Origin: Dickeya fangzhongdai
GTDB taxonomy: Bacteria; Pseudomonadota; Gammaproteobacteria; Enterobacterales; Enterobacteriaceae
Direction: 5' to 3'
NCBI RefSeq assembly: GCF_002812485.1
Contig: NZ_CP025003.1
Span: 3,286,001 to 3,350,000 of the forward strand
DNA: 64,000 nt
Below are positions 5,882-20,977 of the stretch, piece by piece (position 1 is the first letter of the stretch; the number at the start of each line of letters is the position of its first letter). The position numbers and the translations under genes were made by a program. The notes below the pieces were generated by a model that worked only from the letters and a program-made list of their open reading frames with translations, had not been told where the DNA came from and ran no database searches.

Positions 5882-6263
5882 CAGGTTATGTTTCCTGTTT
5901 ATCCACGTGGCAGGGGCCGTGCGAATACCACGCCGGCCCCCGTTCTGATGCCCTCATGTTAGCAGGTTATTCCTCACAATAAGGAGTGATTTTCCGAGCC
6001 GTGCCTGGGAATGGAAAACATCAGCCAAACTGGATAGACACGACCGGCTATCGACCGCAAAATTGGGTGGCTGTCTTTCGCCGACAGAACTCAGGCTGTG
6101 CCCTTACTATTGGCGCCGCTGGCGCGCCGGCAGGCACGCGGCGGCGATCCGGCGCACAGGTTCGGACACTCGGTGAAAGGGCGTCAGCCACGGATGCGCA
6201 CGGTCAAGGGACACCGCCTGATAGGTATAACGATAACTCCGTCTAATGCTGGAAACGACATAC
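5882..6263. other. GC-rich gap between divergent fdhE and MFS genes
   Basis: About 380 bases holding the two divergent promoters. An open frame on the plus strand (GTG at 5986) has no usable ribosome binding site and no recognisable product. The stretch 6110-6240 is unusually GC-rich and lacks detectable coding logic. It could be a remnant of DNA brought in with the MFS gene, but nothing in it is recognisable. Confidence 0.5.
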
Positions 6264-7568
6264 ATGACCGCAGTTTATTCTCAGACACCCACGCCGGGCG
6301 CTATCGCGTCGGTTTACCGCAAAATCACCTGGCGGCTGATCCCGTTCCTGTGCCTGTGTTATCTCGCCGCTTACCTTGACCGCATCAATATCGGGCTGGC
6401 GAAACTGCAGATGGCGAATCAGCTGGCGCTCAGCGACGTCGCCTTCGGCCTCGGCGCCGGGCTGTTCTTCGTCGGCTATATTCTGTTCGAGGTGCCGAGC
6501 AACCTGATTCTGCAACGCGTCGGCGCCCGAATCTGGATCGCGCGCATCATGATCAGCTGGGGATTGCTGTCCGCCGCGACGATGTTTGTCACCACGCCGG
6601 TTCAATTCTACGTGCTGCGTTTTCTGCTTGGCGCGGCGGAAGCCGGTTTTCTGCCCGGCGTGTTGTACTACCTGACGCGCTGGTTCCCCTCCTGGCGGCG
6701 CAGTCGCATCATTTCGCTGTTCATGATCGGCCTGCCGCTTTCCAGTGTGGTGGGCGGCCCGCTGTCAGGCTGGATTATGTCGCATTTTGATTTGGCCCAC
6801 GGGCTGCGCGGCTGGCAGTGGATGTTTTTGTTGGAGGGGCTGCCGAGCGTACTGCTTGGCGTGCTGACCCTCTGGCTGCTGCCGGACGGCGTTGATCAGG
6901 CGCGCTGGCTGAGCGAGACGGACAAAGCGCAGGTGCGCGCCGATCTGGCAATCGACGCCCGCGAAGCGCCGTATATGAAACACCGCTTTCGCGACGGCTT
7001 CTTCAACCTGAAAGTCTGGATGCTGGGCGGCATCGATTTCTCGATTCTGCTGTGCGCCTATGCCATGGGGTTCTGGTTGCCGACCTTCATTAAAAAAGCC
7101 GGCGTGGCCGATATCGGGCAGATTGGCCTGCTGACGGCAGTCCCCAGCATCGCGGCGCTGGCAGGCATGGTATTGCTCGGCGCCAGCTCCGACCGGCTGC
7201 GCGAACGGCGCTGGCACATCATCGTGCCGTTCTGGCTGGGCGCGGCGGCGATGGTGGCGAGCACCTTCTTCACCCAGAATATCGTAATGACGGTGCTGCT
7301 GTTCTCGGTGGCGCAGGCCACCATTATTGGCACCGTGCCGGTGTTCTTCAGCCTGCCCGCCACCTTCCTCACCGGCACCGCCGCCGCTACCGGCTTTGCG
7401 CTGGCCTGCTCGCTGGCGAATATCGCCGGCCTGGTCAGCAATTCAATCATGGGGTTCGCTATGGAGCTAACCGGCAGCGGCAGCGGCGCACTGTGGTTCT
7501 TCGCCTTCTGTCTGCTGCTCAGTTCGCTGCTGGTGGTGGCGCTGCCGGCAAAACTGGTAAATCGCTGA
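6264..7568 (+). CDS. MFS transporter, anion:cation symporter (ACS) family
   Basis: A 434-residue 12-helix carrier. The start of helix 1 and the following loop, LAAYLDRINIGLAKLQM, is the hallmark of ACS-family symporters for organic anions such as tartrate, phthalate, glucarate or 4-hydroxyphenylacetate. Helix 4 shows GAAEAGFLPGVLYYLTRWFP, another family signature. I prefer the ATG at 6264 (GGAA 9 bases upstream) to the ATG at 6246, which has none. No catabolic enzyme lies next to it, so the substrate is open. Its insertion between fdoI and fdhE and the repeat immediately after its stop suggest a later arrival. Confidence 0.9.
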   Translation: MTAVYSQTPTPGAIASVYRKITWRLIPFLCLCYLAAYLDRINIGLAKLQMANQLALSDVAFGLGAGLFFVGYILFEVPSNLILQRVGARIWIARIMISWGLLSAATMFVTTPVQFYVLRFLLGAAEAGFLPGVLYYLTRWFPSWRRSRIISLFMIGLPLSSVVGGPLSGWIMSHFDLAHGLRGWQWMFLLEGLPSVLLGVLTLWLLPDGVDQARWLSETDKAQVRADLAIDAREAPYMKHRFRDGFFNLKVWMLGGIDFSILLCAYAMGFWLPTFIKKAGVADIGQIGLLTAVPSIAALAGMVLLGASSDRLRERRWHIIVPFWLGAAAMVASTFFTQNIVMTVLLFSVAQATIIGTVPVFFSLPATFLTGTAAATGFALACSLANIAGLVSNSIMGFAMELTGSGSGALWFFAFCLLLSSLLVVALPAKLVNR

Positions 7569-7570
7569 GT

Positions 7571-7883
7571 TGGGCTGTAGGCAAACAGCCGTATTGCTTT
7601 GTGAACGGTTAAGGTTGTCTGATTAGGGAATAGTTTCGTGCGAGATAAACGGTGTCGTTTCTTTGTTATCTCATCGCACGCACGACAAGGAGAGGCGCAA
7701 CGCCGCCTCTCCTTGACCTCTGGCTGGTGGCTAAACTGTGCCGCTGCGCGGTTCCTTCGGCGTTCGCCTTCGCTGTTCGGGCCGCCTGTGACGTGCTCCC
7801 AGCACGGCACAGGCTTTCGCGGCGTCCATGCCGCTCATCCGGCGAAGTCGCCCACCTCAGCACAGTTTTTGACGCTGAAAAAC
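7571..7883. repeat. Structured dispersed repeat, copy A
   Basis: A 313-bp element starting 3 bases after the MFS stop and ending 41 bases from the fdoI stop. A diverged copy is at 18468-18784 in the same orientation. Shared hairpins are: GGCTGT/ACAGCC (7573-7578/7585-7590); CAAGGAGAGGC/GCCTCTCCTTG (7686-7696/7705-7715); GCCTGTG/CACAGGC enclosing CGTGCT/AGCACG (7784-7814); and GTTTTT/AAAAAC (7865-7870/7878-7883). Several pairs differ between copies by compensatory changes. Open frames crossing it on both strands are not conserved as protein. Whether it is a mobile element, an RNA or a terminator-like block is not known. Confidence 0.88.
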
Positions 7884-7924
7884 CTCACCATCAACCACAG
7901 ACTTCACCAGTTTGCGAATTAGGA

Positions 7925-8557
7925 TCAGTGCTTATCCTGCGCTTTGGATTGCAGCTCGCGATACCAGCGCGGATGGTGTTTCTTCGCCCAGGAACTGGAA
8001 ACCCAGCCCTCCACCATCGCGGTGATGGTGCCTTTCACCCACAAGGCGGCGTACACATGCACCATGATGGTCAGGATCAAACCGACCGCGGACACCGAAT
8101 GCACCACCAGCGCCGCCCGGATCACCGGGATGGAGAACGACGGCGCGAAGTACGGCCGCCAGATCACGATCCCGCTCGCCAGCAACAGCAGCAGACTGGT
8201 AATCGCCAGCCAGAACACGCATTTCTGACCGAAGTTATAACGACCGGTATCGCCGACTTCTTCGTTGCGGGCGATTTTGTGGATGTTTTTCGCCCACTCC
8301 AGGTCGCTGCGTTCAATCAGGTTGTGTTTCCAGTAGCGTAAGAACATCAGCAGGAAAGCGACAAACATCACTACCCCGACAAACGGGTGCAGGATGCGCG
8401 CCAGCTGCGGCGTACCCAGCACATTCATCAGCCAGTTGAGCGACGGGAAGAAAAAACCCAGCCCGCTCAGTGCGGCGAACACAAAGCAGAACGCCACAAT
8501 CCAGTGATTAATGCGCTCGGGTGCGCTGTAACGCTGAATCCGATTACTCTTTTTCAT
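7925..8557 (-). CDS. fdoI: Formate dehydrogenase-O cytochrome b556 subunit
   Basis: A 210-residue inner-membrane diheme cytochrome b that takes electrons from FdoH and reduces the quinone. It has four transmembrane helices; haem-ligand histidines are visible in PERINHW, LHPFVG and the late [12 protein letters not shown] segment. The ATG at 8557 gives the family N-terminus ([19 protein letters not shown]) and overlaps the end of fdoH by 14 bases. The frame is open ten codons further up, but that part is not conserved. It is the last gene of the fdoGHI operon here. Confidence 0.96.
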
Positions 8558-9446
8558 GCTGCTTGCCCTCGTGGTGCGCTTCGTCATCGTCTTCTACCCG
8601 GTTCGGACCGATACCCACGTAGTGGAATACGCTGGCGGCGAAGGTGGCGGCAAAACCGATAGCGGCCAGCGGTTTCCAGATACCTTTCCAGAAGGTCACC
8701 GCCGGGCTGATGCTCGGGTTGGCCGGCAGGCCGTTGTACAACTGCGGCCTGTCGGCGTGATGCAGCACGTACATCACGTGCGTACCGCCGACGCCGGCCG
8801 GGTCGTACAGACCGGCATTGCTGTAACCACGGCTGTTCAGGTCTATTACTCGTTCGGCCGCCAGCACTTTCATCTCTTCCTTGGTGCCGAAATGAATCGC
8901 CCCGGTCGGGCAGGTCTTCACGCAGGACGGTTCCTGACCAACCTCCACACGGTCGACGCACAGGGTGCACTTGTACACCTTGTTGTCGTCCTTGTTCATG
9001 CGCGGCACGTTGAACGGACAACCGGCGATACAGTAGCCGCACCCGATGCAATGCTCCGACTGGAAGTCGACGATGCCGTTGGCGTACTGGATGATCGCCC
9101 CTTCCGACGGGCAGGCCTTAAGGCAGCCCGGATCGGCGCAGTGCATACAGCCATCCTTGCGGATCAGCCATTCCAGCTTGCCGTTCTCCTCGAATTCGGC
9201 GAAACGCATCACCGTCCAGGATTTGGCGCTGAGATCGGTGGGGTTATCGTACACCCCGACGTTGTGTCCGACGTCATCGCGGATGTCGTTCCACTCGGAA
9301 CAGGCCACCTGACAGGCTTTACAGCCGATACAGGTGGTCACGTCGATCAGTTTGGCGACCTGTTCTTTGTGGTTGCGAGCCTGCGGCGGCGGCGTCAGTG
9401 AGTTGGTCGCGGAGCGACGGATGATATCTTGTGATTGCATTGCCAT
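8544..9446 (-). CDS. fdoH: Formate dehydrogenase-O iron-sulfur subunit
   Basis: A 300-residue beta subunit that carries electrons from the molybdenum site of FdoG to the cytochrome. Four ferredoxin-like Cys clusters are visible: [35 protein letters not shown] and [21 protein letters not shown] single C-terminal transmembrane helix (about 255-280, [17 protein letters not shown]) anchors it in the inner membrane with the clusters on the periplasmic side. The gene starts 15 bases after fdoG ends. Confidence 0.97.
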
Positions 9447-9461
9447 AGTGTTTCTCCGCGA

Positions 9462-12400
9462 CTACGCCTTTTCCACATTGACCAGAAACGCCTTGTACTC
9501 CGGCGTCTGACTGTTGGCGTCGCCGACATGCGGCGTCAGGATATTCGCCATAAAGCCTTTCTGGGTGGTGCCTTCAAAGCCCCAGTGACAGGGCACGCCG
9601 ATGGTCTCCACCGGTTTGCCCTGAATCGTCAGGGTGCGGATACGCTTGGTGACGACGGCTTTCGCCTTGATGTATCCCCGCTTGCTGCTGACCTTCACCA
9701 CATCGCCGGCCTGAATCCCCTTCTGCTTCGCCAGTCCTTCGCCGATTTCGACGAACTGCTCCGGCTGCACGATGGCGTTAAGGCGCGCGTGCTTGGTCCA
9801 GTGGCGGAACAACTCGGTGATCGAATAAGTGGTGGCGACGAACGGGAACTCGTCTGCCGTTCCCATACGCGAGCGGTCCGCTTCCAGAATGCGCGCCACT
9901 GGGTTAATCAGCGCCTTGCTGTACACCGGATTGGTTTTCAGCGGCGATTCGGTCGGTTCGTAATGCGCCGGGAACGGCCCTTCCGCCATCTTGTCGATAG
10001 CAAACAGACGGCCCAGCCCTTCGGCCTGCATAATGAACGGACCGGCGGCGCTGCCCGGCGGGACGGTGGCGGCGAAGTCCGGCACGTCGATACCGCTCCA
10101 CTTCTGACCGTTCCAGCTCAGCAGCACGCGTTTCGGATCCCACGGGCGGCCTTGTTCATCCGCCGAGGCGCGGTTGTAGAGAATGCGGCGGTTCTGCGGC
10201 CAGCACCAGGCCCAGCCCGGCGTACAGCCAAGACCAGACGGATCGGCGTTGTCGCGTCGCGCCATCTGGTTGCCCGCTTCGGTCCAGGAACCGGCGTAAA
10301 TCCAGCAAAAACTGGCGGTGGAGCCGTCATCGCGCATCAGGGAGAAGTCAGGCAGCAGTTGCCCTTTCTTCAGCAGCAGGTTGCCTTTGTCATCGAACAG
10401 ATCCGCCAGCGCGCGACCGTTGGCCTCTTTGGTGATCTCCTCGGCGGACGGATCGTCCGGCTCCAGATAATCCCAGCTCATGTTCAGCACCGGCGCCGGG
10501 TTGGCGCCGCCTTCTTTGGCGTACAGCTCGCGCAGACGCAGGAACAGACCGGCGATAATCACGCCGTCGTGGCGTGCCTCACCCGGCGGCTCAGCGCCCT
10601 GATAGTGCCACTGCAGCCAGCGGCCGGAGTTGACGATGGAGCCGTTTTCCTCGGCGAAACAGCTCGACGGCAGGCGGAACACTTCGGTCTGAATCTTGCC
10701 CGGATCGACGTCATTCAGTTCGCCGTGGTTTTGCCAGAAGTTGGAGGTTTCCGTCGCCAGCGGGTCGATGATCACCAGGTATTTCAACTTCGCCAGCGCG
10801 TCGCGCGCCTTGTTGGAGTCAGCAAATGCGGCTATCGGGTTGAACCCCTGCACGACGTAGCCGTTGACCTTGCCGTCCAGCATCATGCGGGAGTAAGCCA
10901 GCGCATCGTAGCTCTTGTCCCATTTCGGCAGCCAGTCGTAGCCCCAGTCGTTTTCTTTCTGCGCCTTATCGCCCCAGAAGCTTTTCATCATGCTGATAAA
11001 AAACTTGGGCGTGTTCTTCCAGTAGTTGACCTGATCCGCCAGCAGCGCTTTCGGGGTGATCTGATCCAGATAATCTTTCAGCGTGGTCTGTTTTTCCGAC
11101 GGCAGCGGCATGTACCCCGGCAGGTTCAGCGACAGCAGCCCCAGGTCGGTATAACCCTGAATGTTGGAGTGGCCGCGCAGCGCATTCACGCCGCCGCCCG
11201 CCATACCGACGTTGCCCAGCAACAGCTGGATCATCGCCGCGGTGCGGATCATCTGGGCGCCGGAGGTGTGCTGCGTCCAGCCCAGCGCGTACATGATGGT
11301 GGCGGTGCGATCCGGCACGCTGGTGGAGGCCAGCAGGTCGCAAATGGTGAGAAAGTCCTGCTTTGGCGTGCCGCAGACGTTGGTCACCAGATCCGGCGTA
11401 TAGCGGCTGACGTGCGTCTTAAGCAGGTTCCACACACAGCGTGGATGGCTTAGCGTCATATCGCGTTTAGCAAAACCGTTCTCATCCAGTTCGTACTGCC
11501 AGGAGGTGCGGTCGTACTTGCGCTCTTTCTCGCTGTAACCGCTGAAAATCCCCTCGTCGAAACTGAAGTCGTCGCGCACGATCAGGCTGGCGTTGGTGTA
11601 TGCCTGCACATACGGCATCTGCACCTTGTCGTGGCTCAACAGGTAGTTCACCACGCCGAGCAGAAAGGTGATATCGGAGCCGGCGCGAATCGGCGAATAG
11701 AGGTCCGCTACCGCGGCGGAGCGGTTAAAACGCGGGTCGACCACGATCAGCTTGGCGCCGTTTTTCACCTTGGCTTCCACCGCCCACTTAAAGCCGACCG
11801 GGTGCGCTTCCGCCGGGTTGCCGCCCATCACCAGAATGACGTTGGCGTTCTTGATGTCCACCCAGTTGTTGGTCATGGCGCCGCGACCGAACGTCGGCGC
11901 CAGCGCCGCCACGGTCGGGGCGTGACACAGGCGCGCCTGGGTATCGATGCCGACCATCCCCAGCGCGCGGGCAAATTTCTGATCCAGAATGCCGGTTTCA
12001 TTGCTGGCCGCCGACGAACACAGCATCCCGGTGGTCAGCCAGCGGTTAACCGTCACCCCGGCGCTGTTTTTCTCGATGAAGTTGGCGTCGCGGTCTTTTT
12101 TCATCAACCGGGCGATGCGATCAAACGCCTCTTCCCAGCTGATGCGCTGCCACTTGTCGGAACCGGGCGCACGGTATTCCGGGTATTTCAGGCGCTGGTC
12201 GCTATGGATGAAGTCCACCAGTCCGGCGCCTTTCGGGCACAACGAGCCGCGACTGACCGGATGGTCCGGATCCCCTTCGATGTGGTAAATGGATGCTTTG
12301 GCGTTTTTGGCGCCGTCGCCGAGACTGTACATCAGAATCCCGCACCCGACTGAACAGTAGGTGCAATTATTCCGGGTTTCTCTGGCGCGTAATAATTTAT

Positions 12401-12512
12401 ATTGCCGCGTTTCGGCTAACGCGGCACTGGGAGAAAAGCCCAGCGCGGTGACCGTGGTTCCAGCCATACCGCCTGCGCATATTTTAAAGAACTGCCTTCT
12501 GCTGACCTGCAT
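9462..12512 (-). CDS. fdoG: Formate dehydrogenase-O catalytic subunit, cysteine form
   Basis: A 1016-residue molybdenum bis-MGD enzyme that oxidises formate to CO2 in the periplasm. A twin-arginine signal (RRQFFK, residues 5-10) and an N-terminal [4Fe-4S] motif (C50-x2-C53-x3-C57...C92) are present. The length equals the E. coli enzyme. The active-site residue at 196, selenocysteine (UGA) in E. coli FdoG, is here Cys encoded by TGT (11927-11925) within QARLCHAPT, so no selenocysteine machinery is needed. The ATG at 12512 has GAGGAA seven bases upstream; the GTG five codons before it is rejected. Confidence 0.97.
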   Translation of the reverse strand: MQVSRRQFFKICAGGMAGTTVTALGFSPSAALAETRQYKLLRARETRNNCTYCSVGCGILMYSLGDGAKNAKASIYHIEGDPDHPVSRGSLCPKGAGLVDFIHSDQRLKYPEYRAPGSDKWQRISWEEAFDRIARLMKKDRDANFIEKNSAGVTVNRWLTTGMLCSSAASNETGILDQKFARALGMVGIDTQARLCHAPTVAALAPTFGRGAMTNNWVDIKNANVILVMGGNPAEAHPVGFKWAVEAKVKNGAKLIVVDPRFNRSAAVADLYSPIRAGSDITFLLGVVNYLLSHDKVQMPYVQAYTNASLIVRDDFSFDEGIFSGYSEKERKYDRTSWQYELDENGFAKRDMTLSHPRCVWNLLKTHVSRYTPDLVTNVCGTPKQDFLTICDLLASTSVPDRTATIMYALGWTQHTSGAQMIRTAAMIQLLLGNVGMAGGGVNALRGHSNIQGYTDLGLLSLNLPGYMPLPSEKQTTLKDYLDQITPKALLADQVNYWKNTPKFFISMMKSFWGDKAQKENDWGYDWLPKWDKSYDALAYSRMMLDGKVNGYVVQGFNPIAAFADSNKARDALAKLKYLVIIDPLATETSNFWQNHGELNDVDPGKIQTEVFRLPSSCFAEENGSIVNSGRWLQWHYQGAEPPGEARHDGVIIAGLFLRLRELYAKEGGANPAPVLNMSWDYLEPDDPSAEEITKEANGRALADLFDDKGNLLLKKGQLLPDFSLMRDDGSTASFCWIYAGSWTEAGNQMARRDNADPSGLGCTPGWAWCWPQNRRILYNRASADEQGRPWDPKRVLLSWNGQKWSGIDVPDFAATVPPGSAAGPFIMQAEGLGRLFAIDKMAEGPFPAHYEPTESPLKTNPVYSKALINPVARILEADRSRMGTADEFPFVATTYSITELFRHWTKHARLNAIVQPEQFVEIGEGLAKQKGIQAGDVVKVSSKRGYIKAKAVVTKRIRTLTIQGKPVETIGVPCHWGFEGTTQKGFMANILTPHVGDANSQTPEYKAFLVNVEKA

Positions 12513-12542
12513 GGAGATTCCTCGCACGACATCACTCAGAGC

Positions 12543-12608
12543 TATACCCTTTATACGTCAAGTTGCCGATGTGTTGGCTTTCCGGCAACTCAAGCTATTT
12601 GGGGTATA
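12543..12608. repeat. Interrupted palindrome, repetitive-element type
   Basis: A 66-bp imperfect palindrome upstream of fdoG. Outer arms are TATACCC (12543-12549) and GGGTATA (12602-12608); inner arms are AGTTGCCG (12561-12568) and CGGCAACT (12583-12590). The pattern TATACCC...AAGTTGC...GCAACT...GGGTATA recalls the short intergenic palindromes common in Serratia, Yersinia and Pectobacteriaceae. That assignment is from memory and needs a genome-wide count. Confidence 0.65.
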
Positions 12609-13244
12609 CATCGTATTTATGTATTAATGCTTTATTGATATGAATGAATGATGGCAGGAATAACGCATAAACCCCCACCAAACATATGTATTATGAACTG
12701 ATGAATAAAAAGCGCCAATTAATTATCTCAACAACAACAAATCCATCACAATCCACCACAGACAGTCCGTTTTTTAACGTTATCACCAGCTTAAATAGAA
12801 TAATTCTCATTACCAAATCGCGCTAACACACCGTGTCGCTGTATATTTTTTTACATAACGGTAACGAGAAAAGACCGCGACGGTGTTATTCCAATTGGAA
12901 ATAATTAAGAATTTCTTTATAAAAAATCCGCTATCTATAATCTATTTTTACACCTTCGTTAATAACAAGAAAATAACGATGACAATCGTCACTAATAAAA
13001 AAATAACGACGATAATCTTCCGGCTGAAAATAAATAAACCAGTCAGATTGAAAAGAAATAAATCGGAAAATTAAATAATCATATTTCCGACAGCGCTTAC
13101 GACGAAAACCGGCGGCAATCACCTGCCGAAGAAAAAAATAAAAATGAACGTCCCGGTATTAATGAACAAGCGGTATCTATGCGGCCATAGCCGGGAGATA
13201 AGTAATGAGCCGACGGCGTCTGGCATTCAACCAGAGTATCGGCG
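12609..13244. promoter_or_regulatory. AT-rich upstream region of the fdo operon
   Basis: About 640 bases without a credible gene, strongly AT-rich from 12610 to 13080. It should contain the fdoGHI promoter, since the upstream neighbour reads in the same direction and ends at 13245. Short open frames here (for example 12883-13074) consist mainly of Lys/Asn/Ile codons, as expected from base composition, and have no ribosome binding site. No perfect FNR or CRP box was found. Confidence 0.5.
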
Positions 13245-14663
13245 TCAGGAAGAGGACAGCCCTTTTTTCAGCAGAGCGGCCAGCGCGATGATGGCGTTTT
13301 CCGTTTTTTCCTGCCATTCGAAAGAGGTATTGATACGAAAATAGCGGTCAAATTTATCGCCGGTGGTGAACATTCTGCCCGGCGCAATGCTGATGCCCTG
13401 CGCCAACGCCTGCTGATACAGTTCAATGCTATTGAACGCTTCCGGCAGCCCCAGCCATAGGAAATAGCCGCCTTCAGCGTAATAAATGTCCACCCCGGCC
13501 GGGAAATGCACCTTCATCGCCTGATACAACCGGTGTTTACGCTGCTCCAGCGTACGCCGTAAACGCCGCAAATGGCTGTCGTAGCTGCTGGTGGCCAGAT
13601 AATCCGCCACCGCCAGTTGCATCGGCGCGCTGGCGGAGAGCGTACTCATCAGTTGCAGCCGCTGAATACCTTGCGCCCAGCGCCCCGCCGCCACCCAGCC
13701 GACCCGGAATCCGGCAACCAGATTCTTTGAGAAAGACGAACAGTGCAGCACCTGCCCGTCACTATCAAGCGCCTTGACCGGCAGCGGGCGATAGGTGCCG
13801 GCGTACAGTTCGCTGTAGACATCATCTTCAATCAGCGGCACCTGATGCTCGCGCAACAGCGCGGCCAGTTGCTGCTTTTTCTCCCACGCCAGCGTGCAAC
13901 CGAGCGGATTGTGAAAGTTGGTCATCAGCCAGCAGGCACGAATCGGATAATCGTGTAACGCCTGGCGCAACGCCGCCAGATCGACGCCGGTGTGCGGGTG
14001 AGTGGCGATAGCGATGGCTTTCAGTTGTAAACGTTCGATCGCCTGCAACGCGCCGTAAAACGACGGCGACTCCACCACCACATAATCACCGGGCCGGGTC
14101 AGCATCTGCAGGCTCAGATTGAGCGACTCCATCGCGCCGCTGGTAATGACGATCTCGTCCGGCGACACGGCGATGCCCTGCAGCGCGTAGCGCTGGGCTA
14201 TCTGCTTGCGTAGCCGCTCGTTGCCGGGCGGCAGGTTGTCCACCGCGTTTTCAGGTTGCATACGGCGCGCCACCGTCGCCAGCGAGCGGGTCAACTGGCG
14301 CTGGGGAAACAGCCGTGGATCGGGAAAGGCGGAACCGAACGGCACTACGCCGGGCGAGCGGCTGGCGTGCAGCACATCGAAAATAAAGCTGTTGATATCA
14401 ACGTGTTCCGTCAGGTGCACCGCGTCGCCGCTGGCGGGCGGCGCGATCGGCCGTTCGCGCGGCGCGGCATAGTAGCCGGACTGCGGGCGTGAAATGATCC
14501 AGCCCTGACTTTCCAGCAGTTGGTAGGCATGCAGCACCGTCATCAGGCTCAGACCGGAATGCACCGCCTTTTCGCGCAGCGACGGCAATTTTTCTCCCGG
14601 TTGCCAGATGCCGGCCTGTAACTGCGCCTGCATCTGATCGGCCAGTTGTTCGAATTTCGCCAG
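13245..14663 (-). CDS. MocR-type regulator: GntR winged helix fused to PLP aminotransferase fold
   Basis: A 472-residue fusion. Residues 1-75 form a GntR winged helix (GIWQPGEKLPSLREKAVHSGLSLMTVLHAYQLLESQGWI). From about 95 on there is a fold-type I aminotransferase domain with the PLP-lysine motif SSFSKNLVAGFRVGW and Asn/Asp/Tyr ligands (TNFHNPLGC, EDDVYSELY). The layout is like E. coli YdcR. No ATG, GTG or TTG fits the family N-terminus. CTG at 14663-14661 does, with AAGGAG (14676-14671) 7 bases upstream, so I infer a CTG start. The next ATG (14633) would remove the first helix and has no ribosome binding site. It follows the amidotransferase gene by 11 bases, implying co-transcription. Confidence 0.88.
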   Translation of the reverse strand: MAKFEQLADQMQAQLQAGIWQPGEKLPSLREKAVHSGLSLMTVLHAYQLLESQGWIISRPQSGYYAAPRERPIAPPASGDAVHLTEHVDINSFIFDVLHASRSPGVVPFGSAFPDPRLFPQRQLTRSLATVARRMQPENAVDNLPPGNERLRKQIAQRYALQGIAVSPDEIVITSGAMESLNLSLQMLTRPGDYVVVESPSFYGALQAIERLQLKAIAIATHPHTGVDLAALRQALHDYPIRACWLMTNFHNPLGCTLAWEKKQQLAALLREHQVPLIEDDVYSELYAGTYRPLPVKALDSDGQVLHCSSFSKNLVAGFRVGWVAAGRWAQGIQRLQLMSTLSASAPMQLAVADYLATSSYDSHLRRLRRTLEQRKHRLYQAMKVHFPAGVDIYYAEGGYFLWLGLPEAFNSIELYQQALAQGISIAPGRMFTTGDKFDRYFRINTSFEWQEKTENAIIALAALLKKGLSSS

Positions 14664-14674
14664 CGGAGAACTCC

Positions 14675-15418
14675 TTAGCGGGATAACGCCAGTGAGCGGG
14701 ATAACGCCAGCCGGACAAAATCCAGCAGCAACCGCCGCGCCCACACCGGCTCGGCGCTGTCGGCCATTTCCGGCAACGCGCAATGACGCAGGCAGGCATT
14801 CATCACCGCCGCATCCATCTCCGGGTGGAACTGAAACGACAAGGTATGCGGCGTATAACGAATAATCTGGCAACCATCCTGTTCCGATGCCGCCAGCACC
14901 TGTGCGCCGGGCGGCGGCGCTACCACCGACTGAAGATGGCTGAGGTAGGCGCTGAACTGCGTCGGTATCGCCGTCAACAGTGCGTCTTCCGCGGCGTCGT
15001 CATGCAGCGTCACGGTCTTCAAGCCCATTTCCCGGCCATTCGGGTTATCCGCCACCGTACCGCCCAGCGCATGCGCCAACAGCTGATGGCCGTAGCACAC
15101 CCCCAGCACCGGCAGCCCGGCATCCACACTCTGGCGCAACCAGTCGGCGGTGCGTTCGCTCCAGTCCAGCCGGTCGGTCACCATCGACCAGGAACCGCTG
15201 ATGATGGCGGCGTCATGCTCGCCGAGGTTCGGCAAAGCGTCGCCGGCGTCCGGCCGCACCACATGCAGGCGCACGCCTTCATCGGCCAGCGCGCTGCCGA
15301 ACCAGTCGGCCTGCTGGCCGACGGCATGAGCGATCGGTTCGGGCGGTTCGCCCATCTGCACAATGAGCAGCGAAGGCGGTCGGGATGAAACGGGGAAATT
15401 CGCGGTTAACGTCGTCAT
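14675..15418 (-). CDS. Class I glutamine amidotransferase-like protein
   Basis: A 247-residue stand-alone GATase domain. The nucleophile elbow GVCYGHQLLAHALGG carries the catalytic Cys, and the His/Glu of the triad are in FQFHPEMD. It lacks an attached synthase domain, like YfeJ or GuaA-type single-domain proteins. It probably removes the gamma-glutamyl amide of glutamine or a gamma-glutamyl conjugate for an unidentified partner. The C-terminus repeats LALSR twice because of an 18-bp tandem duplication that ends across the stop codon. It is co-transcribed with the MocR-type regulator. Function not established. Confidence 0.88.
   Translation of the reverse strand: MTTLTANFPVSSRPPSLLIVQMGEPPEPIAHAVGQQADWFGSALADEGVRLHVVRPDAGDALPNLGEHDAAIISGSWSMVTDRLDWSERTADWLRQSVDAGLPVLGVCYGHQLLAHALGGTVADNPNGREMGLKTVTLHDDAAEDALLTAIPTQFSAYLSHLQSVVAPPPGAQVLAASEQDGCQIIRYTPHTLSFQFHPEMDAAVMNACLRHCALPEMADSAEPVWARRLLLDFVRLALSRSLALSR
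14677..14712. repeat. 18-bp tandem duplication at a gene end
   Basis: Two adjacent copies of AGCGGGATAACGCCAG plus two variable bases (14677-14694 and 14695-14712). They encode the doubled LALSR at the end of the amidotransferase. The first copy on the plus strand includes the stop codon and abuts the ribosome binding site of the downstream regulator. Confidence 0.85.
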
Positions 15419-15544
15419 GGCGCGTCGCTTGCCTCGGGGACTTTAAACAAGATGAGTTTTGAACGTACCACGCGGGACGCGCCCTGTCACCGCCTCATGC
15501 CGTTGAACTTTACTCATATCGGCAACAGGCGGCGCCCATACCGA

Positions 15545-16030
15545 TCAGCCGGGGATTGACCGGGTGGATGAACGGTATGCCAGAGAAAAGACGTCGTAAA
15601 AATAGAGGTAACCCTTGGTCTGTAACAGCCTGGCGACGCCGTCTTTAACCGACCCGGCCACCTGCGGGCTCTGCAGCAACAACTCCAGCGTCTGGGGCGA
15701 CACATGGCGGCTGTTATACCACTCGCCGTTGTAACACACCCGCAAATCCAGCGCGTCGATATCCTCGAAGCGGTAGCGCGGATTGATATCCATCGACATC
15801 GCCAGCGACATCAGCAGCAGAAACAGCGTAAACCCGGCCACATAAGGCGCGCCGAAATAAGGCGCGTACCATAGAATCAGCGCCACCGGCACATAGCTCA
15901 CCAGCATACCGCCGAACAGATAAGGGTGGCTCACCATGAATTTACGGCTGAAGCGGATGCGATTGTCACGCCGCTCTTCACGGTTCAGACGCTCGATTTC
16001 TTCGCTCAGAATACGTTTGACTTCGTCCAC
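15545..16030 (-). CDS. ylaC: Inner membrane protein YlaC
   Basis: A 161-residue membrane protein of unknown function. Two transmembrane helices lie at about 36-57 and 61-80. The soluble C-terminal half contains the conserved run YRFEDIDALDLRVCYNGEWYNSRHV, which closely matches E. coli YlaC, as do the N-terminal RDNRIRFSRKF and the C-terminal GYLYFYDVFSLA segments. It is monocistronic, with about 120 bases to the amidotransferase start. No biochemical role is known for the family. Confidence 0.87.
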   Translation of the reverse strand: MDEVKRILSEEIERLNREERRDNRIRFSRKFMVSHPYLFGGMLVSYVPVALILWYAPYFGAPYVAGFTLFLLLMSLAMSMDINPRYRFEDIDALDLRVCYNGEWYNSRHVSPQTLELLLQSPQVAGSVKDGVARLLQTKGYLYFYDVFSLAYRSSTRSIPG

Positions 16031-16130
16031 GCTAATCCTCCCGGCACAGCGTTATTCATGCGAGAAGGTAGCATAGGCGCGCAAATCAGAACAGATACAG
16101 TCTGACGTAAAAAAACCATAACAGTTAGCG

Positions 16131-18416
16131 CTACGCTGACAGGCGGCTGGCGGCAATCAGCGCCTGACCCAACGCCAGACCGCCATCGCCGGCCGGCAAA
16201 CGCGACGGCATCAACAGGGTAAAATCCGCCAGCCGCTCACGTAACAGATTGACCAGCAAACGGTTATGCATCACCCCGCCGGAACACGCCACCGTATTCA
16301 GCCCCTGTTCCCGCGCCGCCTGACGCACCAATGCCGCCAGCCCGTCGGCCAGCGCCAGATGAAAGGCAAAGGCGCGGTCGGCCGGCGCAGCGTGATACGC
16401 CAGCCACTGCCGCCAGAACGTCGCCAGATCCAGTTGCTTGCCGGAGAGCGGCATGGTCACCGGCGGCGTTTCATCCTGATGCTGCCGGGCCAGCGCTTCC
16501 AGCCAACAGGCCGCCTCGCCTTCCCAGCTTTGTTCGCCGGCAAACCCGCAGGCGGCGGCCACTGCGTCAAACAACCGCCCGGCGGACGACGCTGGCGGCG
16601 CGTTGAGCCCGCGCGCAATAGCGCGCGTCAACAGCGGCGTTGCGTTAGCGGGGATCGCGCCGGCTTGCGGTAAGGTTTCCCAGTTCGGCACAAACGCCAG
16701 AAATTGCGCCAGCAGATTGCGCCACGGCTGACGCGCCGCCAAATCGCCGCCCGGCAGCGCCACCGCGGGCAAACCGCCCAGATGCCGGCACTGCGTGTAA
16801 TCCACCCGCAGGCATTCGCCGCCCCACCAGCGGTTATCGCCGCCGTAGCCGATGCCATCCAGCGCCAGACCGATCACCGGCCCGGCGTCGCGCGGCCACT
16901 GGTGCTCGGCCATGCAGGCGACGATATGCGCGTGATGGTGCAGCACCTCCATGCAGGGTATCCCCAACTGCGCCGCCTGCTGCTGCCCCAGACGGCGGCT
17001 GGCGTAACCGGGGTGCGCATCCACCGCGATGGCTTGCGGTGTAAACCGGTAGATATCGGCGAACAGCGTCTGCGCCTGCCGGTATTGCCGTTCCACCTCG
17101 TCATCGGCCAGATCGCCCAGATGCTGGCTGACGATCGCGGACCCATCGCGCAGCAGGCAGAAGGTGTTTTTGAGATCCGCGCCCATCGCCAGCAACGCCG
17201 GCTGCTCGCTGAACCCCGGCGGTAGCGGCAAGGCATCCGGCACATAGCCGCGCGCGCGCCGCAGCATCTCCGCCCGCTCCCCCTGCATCCGCACCACCGA
17301 GTCGTCGGCCCGCTGCACGATATCGCGATCGTGCAGCAGCCACAGGTCGGCGATACCCGCCAAATCGGCCAGCGCCTGGGTATTATCCAGCGCCGGCGGC
17401 TTACCGCCGGCATTGCCGGAGGTCATCACCAGCGGCCGCGCCACCGCCGCCAGCAGCAGATGCTGCAACGGATTGGCGGGCAGCATCAATCCCACTTCAT
17501 CCAGACCGGGGGCAACTCCTGCCGCCAGCGCGCCATCCTGTCGTAGCGGCATCAGCACAATCGGCGCCGCCGGGCTTTGCATCAGGCGCAGCGCCGACGC
17601 GGGTTCCACAACCGTGCTGCACTGCGTCAGCCAGCCGGCGTCCGGCAACATCACCGCCAGCGGCTTGGCCGGGCGATGCTTGCGCGATCGCAACTGCGCT
17701 ACCGCCTGCGCATCGGTGGCGTCGCAGGCCAGATGAAACCCGCCCAACCCTTTTAGTGCCACGATTCGCCCGGCGCACAAGGCTGCCGCCGTCTGCATGA
17801 TGGCGTCATCGCCGTGGGCCACGATGCGGTGAGCGTCGCTCAGCCACACCTGCGGGCCGCAGGTGTGGCAGGCGTTGGGCTGGGCATGAAAGCGCCGGTC
17901 CGCCGGGTGCTGGTACTCCTGCCGACACGTCGGGCAAAACGGGAACGCCGCCATCGCGGTATTCGGGCGGTCGTAGGGCATCTGCCGAATGAGGGTAAAA
18001 CGCGGGCCGCAGTGGGTGCAGTTGATAAACGGATAACGGTAGCGGCGGTTATGCGGGTCAAACAACTCCTGACGGCACGCCTCGCAGGTGGCGGCATCCG
18101 GCACGATGTGGGTATCCATCTGCCCGGCGCCGCTGTGCTCAATCACGAAATCGTCCGGCAGCGTCTCCCAGCGGTAGGGCTGACATGCTACCTGGTCGAT
18201 CTGCGCCAGCGGCGGACATTCGGCGTACAATGCCGCCACGAAATCGGCCTCGACGCTCGCCGGCCACAGCCGGATCAGCACGCCCGCGCCGTCGTTGAGC
18301 ACGCTACCTTTGGCGCCAAGACGATGGGCGATTTGCCAGACATAGGGGCGAAACCCCACCCCCTGCACCTTGCCTTTAACGCGGATTCCAATTCCGTCGT
18401 GATGTGGTGACATCAT
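16131..18416 (-). CDS. hypF: Carbamoyltransferase HypF
   Basis: A 761-residue maturation enzyme that uses carbamoyl phosphate and ATP to place a carbamoyl group on the C-terminal Cys of HypE, the source of the cyanide ligands of [NiFe]-hydrogenase. Domains in order: acylphosphatase (about 8-98, with Arg23 in GFRPYV and Asn41), a zinc-finger domain with four CxxC pairs (111/114, 133/136, 161/164, 183/186), a YrdC-like domain (about 200-385) and a Kae1-like domain with [13 protein letters not shown]. Start at 18416 or the adjacent ATG 18413. A structured repeat now separates it from hypE. Confidence 0.97.
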
Positions 18417-18467
18417 AAGCTATCACTGTAAGTGTTACTGTATGGACACCGGCGCATCCCGCATATC

Positions 18468-18784
18468 TGGGCTGCTGACAAGCAGCCGGGTTGTTTTGCA
18501 AACGGTGAATTTTTTCTGGTCAGTGAATAATTTCGTGCGGAATAAACAGCATCATTTCTTTGCCACTTCGTCGCTCGCACGACAAGGAGAGGCTCAAACG
18601 CCGCCTCTCCTTGACCACTGGCTGGGAGGCTAAACTGTGCCGCTAACGCGGTCCCTTCGGCGATCGCCTTCGCTATTCGGGCCGCCCGTGACGTGCTCCC
18701 GGCACGACACGGGCTTTCGCGGCATCCATGCCGCTCACCCGGCGAAGTCGTCCACCTCAGCACAGTTTTTGACGCCGGAAAAAC
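18468..18784. repeat. Structured dispersed repeat, copy B
   Basis: A 317-bp second copy of the element at 7571-7883, lying between hypF and hypE. Corresponding hairpins are: GGCTGCT/AGCAGCC (18470-18476/18481-18487); CAAGGAGAGGC/GCCTCTCCTTG (18583-18593/18603-18613); GCCCGTG/CACGGGC enclosing CGTGC/GCACG (18684-18714); and GTTTTT/AAAAAC (18765-18770/18779-18784). Relative to copy A, T:A pairs have become C:G in two stems. A 127-codon open frame on the minus strand (18796-18413) crosses the element, but its counterpart in copy A differs by many non-synonymous changes and a frame slip. Confidence 0.88.
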
Positions 18785-18833
18785 GCCGTCCTGCACGTAC
18801 TGAATGGGCTGGTAGCCTATAACCCACTAACGT

Positions 18834-19862
18834 TCAGCAAATCCTTGGCATGGGCTCGCTGTGGGGTAAATCCAGCAGCCGAGAGGCGCCGAACACGCCG
18901 CACAGGCGCACCTGTTTTTTATCGGTGACGCTGCCGATAACCGCGGCATCTCGCCCCAGCGGATGCGACCGCAAGGCGTCCAGCACCCGGTTTTCCGCCT
19001 CCGGCGACACCGCCAGCACCAGTTTGCCTTCGTTGGCGAAATTCAGCGCCTCCAGCCCCAGCAGTTCGCAGATACCGCGCACCGCCGGTTTGACCGGCAA
19101 GGCGCTCTCCTGCACTTCCATACCGCAGCCGCTGGCCTGCGCGAATTCATGCAGGATCGCCGTCACCCCGCCGCGGGTGGCGTCACGCAGGGCGCGAACG
19201 CCGTCAATCTGACGCAGCGGCGCAATCAGCGGCGTCAGTACTGCGCAATCGCTGGTCAGCTCCGCTTCCAGCCCCAGCTTCTCACGCAGATTCAGGATAG
19301 TGGCGCCATGATCCCCCAGCGTGCCGCTGACGATAAGACGATCGCCGGGACGGATTTCGCCAGTACCCCAACGCAGGTGGTGAGGAATCACGCCGATACC
19401 GGCGGTATTGATGAAAATCTTGTCCGCCGCGCCGCGCGGCACCACTTTAGTATCGCCGGTAACGATCTGGATCCCGGCGTCGCGGGCGGTCTGCGCCATT
19501 GAGGTGACAAGACGCAGCAACGTCTCACCCGCCAGCCCTTCTTCCAGAATAAAGCCGCAGGAGAGATAACGCGGCAGCGCGCCGCTCACCGCCAGATCGT
19601 TAACCGTGCCGCACACCGCCAGTTTGCCGATGTCGCCGCCGGGAAACTCGATCGGATCGATGACGTAGCTGTCGGTGGTGAACGCCAGCCGGTCGCCCTG
19701 CTCGCTTAATGCGGCCAGCGGCAAACGCGCCTGATCCTCGCGCTCCGCCAGCAACGGATTATCAAACGCCTGCAGAAACAATCCTTCGATCAGTTGCTGC
19801 ATCGCCTGCCCGCCGCTGCCGTGCGCCAGGGTAATCTCTTTGGGTAATAACGTGTTCTTCAT
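18834..19862 (-). CDS. hypE: Hydrogenase maturation protein HypE
   Basis: A 342-residue PurM/ThiL-like ATPase. It dehydrates the thiocarboxamide on its own C-terminal Cys to thiocyanate, giving the CN ligands of the active site. The glycine-rich start ITLAHGSGGQAMQQLI and the terminal PRIC, with the essential last-residue Cys, are both present. The ATG at 19862 overlaps the hypD stop (ATGA); the frame is open further upstream inside hypD, but that part is not HypE. It works with HypF, HypC and HypD. Confidence 0.97.
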   Translation of the reverse strand: MKNTLLPKEITLAHGSGGQAMQQLIEGLFLQAFDNPLLAEREDQARLPLAALSEQGDRLAFTTDSYVIDPIEFPGGDIGKLAVCGTVNDLAVSGALPRYLSCGFILEEGLAGETLLRLVTSMAQTARDAGIQIVTGDTKVVPRGAADKIFINTAGIGVIPHHLRWGTGEIRPGDRLIVSGTLGDHGATILNLREKLGLEAELTSDCAVLTPLIAPLRQIDGVRALRDATRGGVTAILHEFAQASGCGMEVQESALPVKPAVRGICELLGLEALNFANEGKLVLAVSPEAENRVLDALRSHPLGRDAAVIGSVTDKKQVRLCGVFGASRLLDLPHSEPMPRIC

Positions 19863-20977
19863 CAGGCGCACTCCCGGCGATACTGATAATAAGCGGCGCA
19901 GGCGCCTTCCGAGGACACCATCAGCGCGCCGATAGCGTTTTGCGGCGTGCAGCGCTGGCCGAACAGCGGGCAGTCGCCCGGTTTGCAACGCCCGGTGAGC
20001 ACCTCGCCGCAGCGCGACAACGGCTCGTCCGCCACCTGCTGTTGCTGCGGATTGAAGCGGCGCTCAGCGTCGAATTCGGCGTATTCCGCCCGCAGTTGCA
20101 TGCCGGAATCGGCGATTTCCCCCAACCCGCGCCACTCGCTGCTGGCTTTGGTTTCGAACACCTCCGCCATCGCCTGCTGCGCCAACGTGTTGCCGCTGTC
20201 CGGCACGATGCGGCGGTACTGGTTTTCCACCTCGCAGCGCTCGTCGTGCAGTTGCTGCACCAGCATCAGCAGCGCCTGCAGAATATCCAGCGGCTCGAAA
20301 CCGGTGACCACAAACGGCTTGTGAAACTGCTCGCACAACGGCTGATAGGGATAAGCGCCAATCACCATGCTGACGTGCCCCGGCGCCAGAAAGCCGTCGA
20401 TACGTAAATCCGGTTGTTCCAGCAGGCTTTTCAACGTCGGGATAATGGTGATGTGCTGGCAGAACAGCGAAAAATTACGGATACCGCGGCGTTTGGCCTG
20501 TTGCAGCGTCAACGCGGTGCTCGGCATGGTGGTTTCGAACCCCAGCCCGAAAAACACCACCTGCCGATCAGGAAACTGTTCCGCCAGCGCCAGCGCGTCC
20601 AGCGGCGAGTAGACTACCCGCACATCAGCGCCGTGGCGGCGAGCGTCCTGCAACGACCCGTTGCGGCCCGGCACCCGCATGGCGTCGCCGAAGGTGCAGA
20701 AAATCACCTCCGGACGGGCGGCGATCTCCAGACAGGCGTCAATCCGCCCCATCGGCAACACGCACACCGGGCAGCCCGGCCCGTGTACAAACTCGATTTC
20801 CGGCGGCAATAATCGGTCGATACCGAATTTAAAGATGGCGTGGGTATGTCCGCCGCACACTTCCATCAACTGCAACGGGCGCGTTTTCAGTTGCGGCATC
20901 GCGTCGACCAGCGCCTGAATGCGCTGCAACAACGCTTTCGCCAGCTCAGGATCGCGAAATTCATCAACGTACTGCAT
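19862..20977 (-). CDS. hypD: Hydrogenase maturation protein HypD
   Basis: A 371-residue iron-sulfur protein that with HypC forms the scaffold on which Fe(CN)2CO is assembled. The catalytic cysteines lie in [11 protein letters not shown] (Cys41) and [16 protein letters not shown] (Cys69/72). A C-terminal Cys cluster (about 325-360: [21 protein letters not shown]) holds the [4Fe-4S] centre. I chose the ATG at 20977 because GGAG lies 6 bases upstream and it fits the E. coli length; an in-frame ATG at 21004 is less likely. It overlaps hypC by 14 bases and hypE by ATGA. Confidence 0.96.

What the first reader, a model, noticed from the sequence alone, without database searches (positions are those of the whole stretch)
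7571..18784. Structured dispersed repeat with compensatory base changes (two copies)
Two same-orientation copies (7571-7883 and 18468-18784) align end to end. All major hairpins are kept although the sequence has diverged. In the first stem GGCTGT/ACAGCC in copy A becomes GGCTGC/GCAGCC in copy B, a T:A to C:G change. In the third stem GCCTGTG/CACAGGC becomes GCCCGTG/CACGGGC, another T:A to C:G double change; the inner CGTGCT/AGCACG becomes a T:G wobble. The second stem CAAGGAGAGGC/GCCTCTCCTTG is unchanged while its loop differs. Such covariation argues for selection on nucleic-acid structure. I recognise no named family; it could be a non-autonomous mobile element, a structured RNA or an mRNA-processing signal.
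Basis: seen in the sequence. Interest (0 to 1): 0.8.

Follow-up and report, generated by a model that had tools for sequence, protein, structure and literature searches.

The report
Terminator-targeting mobile DNA repeat in Dickeya
The two repeats are copies of a short mobile DNA element, without genes of its own, that inserts into transcription stop signals behind bacterial genes, duplicates the stop hairpin, and carries conserved hairpins that may bind the regulator CsrA/RsmA.

Summary
The element is about 352 bp, some 39 bp longer than reported. It occurs at 28 places in this Dickeya genome (my grouping of 41 matches) and in 11 of 117 genomes searched, own included. Its ends, TGAGGCTGTTGACAAAC and TCAGACTGCTGACAAAC, are those of the published repeat YPAL/RU-2 and, with few mismatches, of complete IS1182-family elements. 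Over 42 two-ended sites (this element, short relatives, IS1182), 27 have an 18-28 bp target duplication, centred on a terminator-like hairpin in 25. Relatives show an empty site with one hairpin. So it is a non-autonomous IS1182/YPAL-type MITE: a new variant of a known kind. New here: the YPAL-IS1182 link (no held paper has both names) and, on the minus strand, two adjacent covarying hairpins with GGA in the loop (23 of 23 and 24 of 24), the mark of CsrA/RsmA sites. That function is untested. Against: no IS1182 transposase in this genome; both window copies have decayed 3' ends and no duplication.

The parts
7571..7922 (+). Copy A of the element (352 bp as cut; 5' end recognisable, 3' end decayed); fills the gap between the stop codons of two convergent genes
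   Evidence: gene ends
18468..18822 (+). Copy B of the element (355 bp as cut; 3' end decayed); lies in the gap between the HypE-like and HypF-like genes
7573..7590 (+). 5' terminal inverted repeat and terminal hairpin of copy A (GGCTGTAGGCAAACAGCC)
   Evidence: helix 1
18470..18487 (+). 5' terminal inverted repeat and terminal hairpin of copy B (GGCTGCTGACAAGCAGCC)
   Evidence: helix 1
7686..7715 (+). Central hairpin CAAGGAGAGGC/GCCTCTCCTTG of copy A; the same hairpin in other copies is the insertion site of an IS110-family element
   Evidence: (helix 4)
18583..18613 (+). Central hairpin CAAGGAGAGGC/GCCTCTCCTTG of copy B
   Evidence: helix 4
7784..7814 (-). Copy A, helix 10; minus-strand loop carries GGA
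   Evidence: L005 row
18684..18714 (-). Copy B, helix 10; minus-strand loop CGGGA
   Evidence: L001 row
18679..18740 (-). Sub-threshold match to RF01731 TwoAYGGAY over helices 10 and 11 of copy B
   Evidence: 32.8 bits, E 0.0019, gathering score 43
6246..7568 (+). Upstream neighbour of copy A: 440 aa ORF (transporter-like by eye) whose stop codon lies 2 bp before the element
7925..8587 (-). Other neighbour of copy A: 220 aa ORF (formate dehydrogenase cytochrome subunit by eye), convergent
16131..18416 (-). Neighbour of copy B: 761 aa ORF (HypF-like by eye)
18834..19988 (-). Neighbour of copy B: 384 aa ORF (HypE-like by eye), its stop codon next to the 3' end of the element

Best explanation
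The repeat is a non-autonomous transposable element (MITE) of about 352 bp whose ends are those of a subgroup of IS1182-family insertion sequences and of the Yersinia repeat YPAL. SHOWN: dispersed copies, inverted ends, target duplications that coincide with terminator-like palindromes, a single-palindrome empty site in relatives, full-length IS1182 elements in other bacteria with nearly the same ends and the same kind of duplication, and positions just downstream of genes. INFERRED: an IS1182-type transposase mobilised the copies in trans; it recognises the palindrome as a hairpin or cruciform and joins at the feet of the two arms, so that filling in duplicates the whole hairpin (a branch drawn hypothetically in Fig. 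13 of Wan et al. 2017). Insertion leaves a hairpin with little U-tract on the entry side and a hairpin with its native tract on the exit side, so transcripts of the flanking genes should read into the element and stop behind it. The conserved internal hairpins would then be a selected RNA (or DNA) feature carried in 3' UTRs; what they do is a separate, less certain claim.
For: 41 matches in the own genome; 11 of 117 genomes, own included, 3 of 96 genera. Genus named through contigs of Dickeya oryzae and D. undicola (strict pattern, 6 stretches; contig lengths 387993 and 214414 equal those of G002:C3 and G003:C15). YPAL/RU-2 as printed in PMC2759123 Table 1b (passage) begins TTCAGACTGCTGACAAACCCC; its first bases align (16-20 nt, 85-100%) with the 3' end of 10 of 24 copies at E <= 1. 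The end TCAGACTGCTGACAAAC with up to one mismatch occurs in 30 of 195 genomes, 23 of 154 genera; the reversed control in 2 of 195. Five IS1182 elements (L156-L160) carry TCAGACTGCTGACAAAG (TCAGACTGCTGACAAAGG in L159) at one end and a form with 1-3 mismatches to TCAGACTGCTGACAAA at the other; transposase of L156 NF033551 486.7 bits, cut-off 270. Target duplications at 27 of 42 two-ended sites (9 of 22 of this element, 14 of 15 short elements of other genera, 4 of 5 IS1182), counted at score 6 or more, 26 of them at 8 or more; mismatched flank pairs reached 8 in 5 of 1710; stem centre within 1.5 bp of the duplication centre in 25 of 27. Empty site of L004 with one palindrome in 6 relatives: 4 aligned over all or all but one of the 500 nt, 2 past the junction only (to 257 and 308). 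At 23 of the 27 duplicated sites, five or more T in the 8 bases behind the exit hairpin in 34 of 46 cases, behind the entry hairpin in 5 of 46. Neighbours of 45 copies: 24 convergent, 11 and 8 co-directional, 1 divergent, 1 with one neighbour only.
Against: The own genome has no IS1182 transposase match (0 at E <= 0.001, 4 candidates scored); no Dickeya genome searched has one over the cut-off, six have weak partial matches. Nine full-length or near-full IS1182 loci of relatives with other ends (L126-L134) showed no hairpin-long duplication in a simple search. Neither window copy has a recognisable 3' end or duplication, and 15 of 42 two-ended sites have none. The second empty-site test (L012) was uninformative: the 8 relatives aligned on one side only. 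IS1272, the studied IS1182 member, deletes its target hairpin and makes no duplication (PMC4923244, PMC5678879, passages). Sites were chosen by length windows set by hand; some are orthologous (L046/L053, probably L036/L051 and L034/L045). A first null mixed rows of the same loci and reached 20 at its top 0.1%; the null leaves those out. The review PMC2229807 lists YPAL as having internal, not terminal, inverted repeats.
Confidence: 0.86

Rival explanations
1. The element is primarily a structured RNA module: its minus-strand RNA presents two adjacent GGA-loop hairpins that bind CsrA/RsmA, so that copies in 3' UTRs act as local CsrA targets or collectively as a sponge; mobility is only how it spread.
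For: Minus-strand loops hold GGA in 23 of 23 (helix 10; L016 lacks it) and 24 of 24 (helix 11, ANGGA or AGGA) copies while the stems covary. Rfam TwoAYGGAY over both hairpins of copy B, 32.8 bits; TwoAYGGAY was proposed as CsrA-binding, such hairpins generally coming in pairs (PMC4333381, passages). GGA-loop hairpins: 70 on the minus strand of 24 copies against 20.1 in shuffles, 10 against 15.3 on the plus strand. Both loops present in 5 of 5 diverged copies looked at (L040, L050, L193, L196, L197; the last three orthologous and cut out with a motif that includes helix 11) and a GGA loop at the helix-10 place in 5 of 6 longer forms that were parsed. The genome encodes one CsrA. The published YPAL sequence has two such hairpins on the same strand.
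Against: The Rfam score is below the gathering score of 43; the same call gave an equally low E-value (0.0017) to an unrelated thermometer family on the plus strand at 19.6 bits against 125; a scan of 19 loci gave one further weak hit only (L006, E 0.81; L001 itself was not listed). 31 of 52 unpaired columns of the domain are invariant anyway. 14 other short elements plus YPAL show little enrichment (8 on the minus strand against 5.3). L017, a longer form, has a GAAAA loop instead. Genes read into the minus-strand side in 32 of 45 copies and into the plus-strand side in 36 of 45: no orientation preference. The stems are long; most SELEX ligands of CsrA had four or fewer contiguous pairs (PMC7652899, passage). 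No transcript data.
Confidence: 0.33
2. Covariation without function: the stems are kept matched by template-switch (quasipalindrome) correction during replication and by exchange of segments between copies, and the interior is just the remnant of a decayed transposon.
For: Cells with both sides changed outnumber those with one side changed (74 against 18 by my sum of the table), which fits concerted correction; the mechanism is recalled, not tested. Copies are mosaic, with alternative modules at helix 10.
Against: Long-range helices covary too: helix 6 (columns 173-177 with 299-303) and helices 8 and 9, where local template switching is less likely.
Confidence: 0.3
3. It is YPAL itself, extended in Dickeya.
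For: Same ends and same target habit.
Against: Length 352 against 168 bp; outside the ends, matches of YPAL to the 24 copies are at most 14 nt.
Confidence: 0.1

Closest known systems
YPAL / RU-2 (Yersinia palindromic sequence; De Gregorio et al. 2006 recalled and as cited in PMC2229807; sequence in PMC2759123)
   Same: Terminal sequences, variable-length target duplications at dyad symmetries, intergenic; two GGA-loop hairpins on the same strand
   Different: 168 bp against about 352 bp; interior unrelated in sequence; listed for Yersinia sp. and Erwinia carotovora in the review's table
IS1182-family insertion sequences (NF033551)
   Same: Ends (few mismatches) and duplication of a terminator-like palindrome in L156-L159
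   Different: 1593-1607 bp with a transposase gene; no match in this genome; members with other ends showed no such duplication
IS1272 / TnSha1 of staphylococci (IS1182 family)
   Same: Targets hairpins and terminators with little sequence specificity (PMC4923244, PMC5678879, passages)
   Different: Deletes the hairpin and makes no duplication
TwoAYGGAY RNA (RF01731) and CsrA-binding sRNAs
   Same: Two adjacent hairpins with GGA loops; TwoAYGGAY and CsrC carry the same clan number CL00106
   Different: Below gathering score; here a dispersed repeat rather than a single RNA gene
ERIC / RU-1
   Same: Dispersed enterobacterial MITE
   Different: 127 bp, TA at its termini (PMC2229807 Table 1; PMC2759123); not compared by alignment

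Membership tests
YPAL / RU-2 | Terminal sequences TTCAGACTGCTGACAAAC.../...TTGTCAATAACCTCA | tested here: met
   3' end aligned in 10 of 24 copies at E <= 1; 5' end by comparison with the family consensus
YPAL / RU-2 | Target duplications of variable length (3-26 bp) at dyad symmetries | tested here: met
   9 of 22 two-ended sites of this element, 18-22 bp
YPAL / RU-2 | About 168 bp with the YPAL interior | tested here: not met
   329-355 bp as cut; no interior match over 14 nt
MITE of an IS1182 element | Inverted ends matching an IS with a transposase gene | tested here: met
   L156-L160 ends, NF033551 486.7 bits for L156; matches are to elements of other bacteria
MITE of an IS1182 element | Same kind of target duplication as that IS | tested here: met
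   4 of 5 IS1182 elements with these ends; not seen for 9 loci with other ends
MITE of an IS1182 element | Autonomous partner in the same genome | tested here: not met
   0 matches to NF033551 in G000
MITE of an IS1182 element | Mobilisation in trans by the transposase | not testable with these tools
   needs a transposition assay
CsrA/RsmA-binding RNA | GGA in hairpin loops, in pairs | tested here: met
   minus strand, 23 of 23 and 24 of 24
TwoAYGGAY (RF01731) | Rfam gathering score 43 | tested here: not met
   32.8 bits, 30.8 bits
CsrA/RsmA-binding RNA | Transcription of that strand and binding by the protein | not testable with these tools
   no expression data on hand
Any Rfam family | Match at gathering score in the window | tested here: not met
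   0 matches in 64 kb

The most novel reading that the evidence does not exclude
A terminator-seeking IS1182-type MITE has been exapted as a mobile CsrA/RsmA-binding module: each insertion hands the 3' UTR of a flanking gene a pair of covarying hairpins with ANGGA/NNGGA loops between a duplicated terminator hairpin and its U-tract, so that some 28 dispersed copies both tag individual mRNAs for RsmA and together titrate it, with YPAL an independent version of the same arrangement in Yersinia.
Probability: 0.3. Interest if true: 0.85.

Novelty: new variant of a known kind. Interest (0 to 1): 0.62.

Why it matters
What moves YPAL-type repeats was open in the 2007 review of which I read passages (PMC2229807: no experimental support for a transposase, end comparisons not made or not found except for RUP). 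Shared ends and the same target habit point to IS1182 transposases, and duplications centred on the hairpin at 25 of 27 duplicated sites fit the cruciform-foot branch that was only drawn for IS1272. Placement between terminator hairpin and U-tract would explain how such elements enter 3' UTRs with little harm. If the GGA hairpins bind RsmA, a transposon would be distributing post-transcriptional control sites in a genus where RsmA is a major regulator (recalled).

Tried and rejected
Known RNA family: no gathering-level Rfam hit in the window. E. coli, plasmid and phage collections: no match to the 371-nt query from L003. IS110 as parent: the IS110-family gene found inside three copies looks like an intruder, because it sits in the middle of the repeat at one fixed point. 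The yajD-like gene between two element pieces in L028 (named by eye) was judged native and not followed. Group II intron: considered because of the terminator target; dropped because the ends and the Rfam scan give no support. In-place inversion: at the orthologous gaps the element has the opposite orientation in some species, but its place in the gap seems to differ too, so I do not claim inversion. GGA hairpins as a general trait of such MITEs: not supported (8 against 5.3 over 14 other elements plus YPAL). Wobble departures as a strand indicator: looked at by eye in the table (more A-C than G-U), too few and not independent, not used. No covariance model was built and no structure prediction or protein-database search was run. 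In one search the parse of L018 and L024 missed the element, so they are left out of the loop count.
Full report
1. What was checked. Single-strand folding is better than that of shuffles (z -3.0 for A and -5.3 for B plus strand, -3.9 for B minus strand). A search of the own genome (5.03 Mb, two contigs) with copy B gave 41 matches (52 candidates, 40 scored); grouping pieces that lie together I count 28 places. Of 117 genomes searched, own included, 11 matched: the nine of the genus, and one genome each of two other genera, the last at 75% identity.

2. The true extent. The two ends are imperfect inverted repeats (14 of 17 positions, TGAGGCTGTTGACAAAC with TCAGACTGCTGACAAAC). As cut for alignment, 27 of 28 full copies are 351-355 bp and one is 329. 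Copy A spans about 7571-7922 and copy B about 18468-18822; in both the 3' end has decayed. Longer copies have an extra hairpin module at helix 10, and shorter forms exist: L079 (115 bp) and a 162-163 bp form at the site of copy A in three other Dickeya genomes.

3. Structure. Of 28 full-length copies, 24 below 95% mutual identity were aligned (mean identity 80%; 23 in Dickeya, L036 in genus g15). RNAalifold gives 72 pairs. Counted on the alignment, 98.0% of cells pair (shuffled 94.2), 19 pairs have changes on both sides (7.9 +/- 1.5, 0 of 500 reach it), 74 cells (23.0 +/- 4.8, 0 of 500), covariation score 0.131 (0.063, 0 of 500); further pair types are not exceptional (29 against 27.1, 63 of 500). 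Structures slid by 1-3 columns pair in 31-47% of cells; as the structure was derived from the same sequences it is favoured over the slid ones. It does not by itself say RNA: the stems would covary for a DNA hairpin, or under template-switch correction (recalled), although long-range helices 6, 8 and 9 covary too.

4. Mobility. Several copies are flanked by direct repeats that are themselves palindromes, for example AAGGCCGCTATCGCGGCCTT on both sides of L004. I took 42 sites with two recognisable ends (length windows set by hand; some orthologous): 22 of this element (L036 in g15, the rest in Dickeya), 15 short elements of other genera, 5 complete IS1182 elements. A duplication of 18-28 bp is present in 27 (9, 14 and 4) at score 6 or more, 26 of them at 8 or more; mismatched flank pairs gave 8 or more in 5 of 1710. 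In the rebuilt empty site the best stem is centred within 1.5 bp of the duplication centre in 25 of 27 (an earlier null that mixed rows of one locus was set aside). The joined flanks of L004 align through the junction in 6 of the 8 relatives, 4 over all or all but one of the 500 nt and 2 past the junction only (to 257 and 308), each with a single palindrome; 2 relatives gave no match. The same test for L012 was uninformative: the 8 relatives aligned only on one side. The window copies themselves offer no duplication.

5. The partner. The end TCAGACTGCTGACAAAC (up to one mismatch) occurs in 30 of 195 genomes and 23 of 154 genera; the reversed control in 2 of 195. Forty loci around such ends, chosen by me, were fetched; besides 90-317 bp elements in terminators, one draft genome, G127, had pieces of an IS1182 transposase directly inside the end. 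Complete elements came from plasmid records: five IS1182 elements of 1593-1607 bp, one end TCAGACTGCTGACAAAG and the other with 1-3 mismatches to TCAGACTGCTGACAAA; the L156 protein scores 486.7 bits for NF033551 against a cut-off of 270. Four have exact hairpin duplications; L160 has two different hairpins at its ends. Against a general rule: nine IS1182 loci of relatives (L126-L134), those with clear ends having other ones (such as CAGGCTGTGTGAAAAC or GAGGCTGTAGAATTTATC), showed no hairpin-long duplication in a simple search. The own genome has no IS1182 transposase, and no Dickeya genome searched has one over the cut-off, so these copies look stranded, or depend on an enzyme that comes and goes; this is inference.

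6. Known relatives. Delihas 2007 (PMC2759123, passages) prints YPAL/RU-2, 168 nt; its first bases align at 85-100% with the 3' end of 10 of 24 copies, and no interior match exceeds 14 nt. The review PMC2229807 (passages and section 11) says YPAL duplications vary from 3 to 26 bp and targets span or adjoin dyad symmetries, lists its inverted repeats as internal, and finds transposase mobilisation unproven. IS1272, an IS1182 member, targets hairpins and terminators but deletes them (PMC4923244 and PMC5678879, passages); Wan et al. draw, as one hypothetical branch of Fig. 13 (legend read), attack at the 5' feet of a cruciform with duplication of the stem-loop, which is what these sites show. A library search for papers with both YPAL and IS1182 found none; this covers only the open papers held.

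7. Placement. With a simple codon-score gene call on 45 of 57 loci (12 with fragmentary or duplicate hits left out), neighbours are convergent in 24, both forward in 11, both reverse in 8, divergent in 1, and one copy has one neighbour only. The element thus nearly always lies behind a gene. At 23 of the 27 duplicated sites, read in both directions, the hairpin met first is followed by five or more T in eight bases in 5 of 46 cases, the hairpin met last in 34 of 46. This follows partly from the fixed sequence of the ends and is a description, not a test; it predicts read-through into, and termination behind, the element.

8. A possible function. On the minus strand the domain folds into two adjacent hairpins closed by a longer stem in the three domain stretches folded. 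The loop of helix 10 holds GGA in 23 of 23 copies (L016 lacks the helix) and that of helix 11 A(N)GGA in 24 of 24, while their stems covary. GGA in hairpin loops, with an ANGGAN loop in RsmE complexes, is the CsrA/RsmA signature (PMC7652899, passages), and Rfam finds TwoAYGGAY, a proposed CsrA-binding RNA (PMC4333381, passages), over both hairpins of copy B at 32.8 bits, below its gathering score of 43. The genome has one CsrA gene. Against this: the same Rfam call gave an equally low E-value to an unrelated family on the other strand; 31 of 52 unpaired columns of the domain are invariant anyway; 19 loci gave one further weak hit; 14 other short elements plus YPAL show little enrichment (8 against 5.3), although YPAL itself has two such hairpins; one longer form has lost the GGA at helix 10; and copies show no preferred orientation to their neighbours. 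I put the CsrA reading at about 0.3.

9. Verdict. A non-autonomous IS1182/YPAL-type MITE; the mode of insertion is well supported by sequence, the enzyme by shared ends only, the function of the interior is open.

Noticed in passing
L187, L188, L189 (G000 C1:1241088, 4608262, 503850): The 3 matches to an IS110-family protein (NF033542) in this genome, 99-100% identical, all sit inside the repeat at one point of the central hairpin, consistent with a CT core in GGAGAGGCT/CAAACGCC; the repeat looks like its programmed target.
   Followed up: partly
L058 (G000 C1:1872300-1873100): A copy of the repeat with a short remnant starting with the IS110 left-end sequence at the same point.
   Followed up: partly
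window 18392-18833 and 7569-7924; orthologous gaps L190-L198, L202-L207: At the gap of copy B the element lies in the opposite orientation in 4 of 9 Dickeya genomes, and at the gap of copy A in 2 of the 6 genomes with both anchors: the same gaps seem to be hit repeatedly.
   Followed up: partly
L193, L196, L197 (gap of copy B in three Dickeya genomes): A different element that shares mainly the two-GGA-hairpin module, at 76-83% identity, occupies the gap.
   Followed up: partly
L160 (Providencia plasmid): An IS1182 copy whose two flanks carry different complete palindromes, as expected from recombination between two insertions.
   Followed up: no
L092 2408-2466 and L117 2592-2628: Sub-threshold naRNA4 matches inside two short elements of other genera, i.e. 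REP-like sequence inside such MITEs.
   Followed up: no
L013 3152-3313: Truncated match to RF02741 Rev44 antisense RNA of soft-rot bacteria, 111 bits (gathering 178), cut off by the end of the locus.
   Followed up: no
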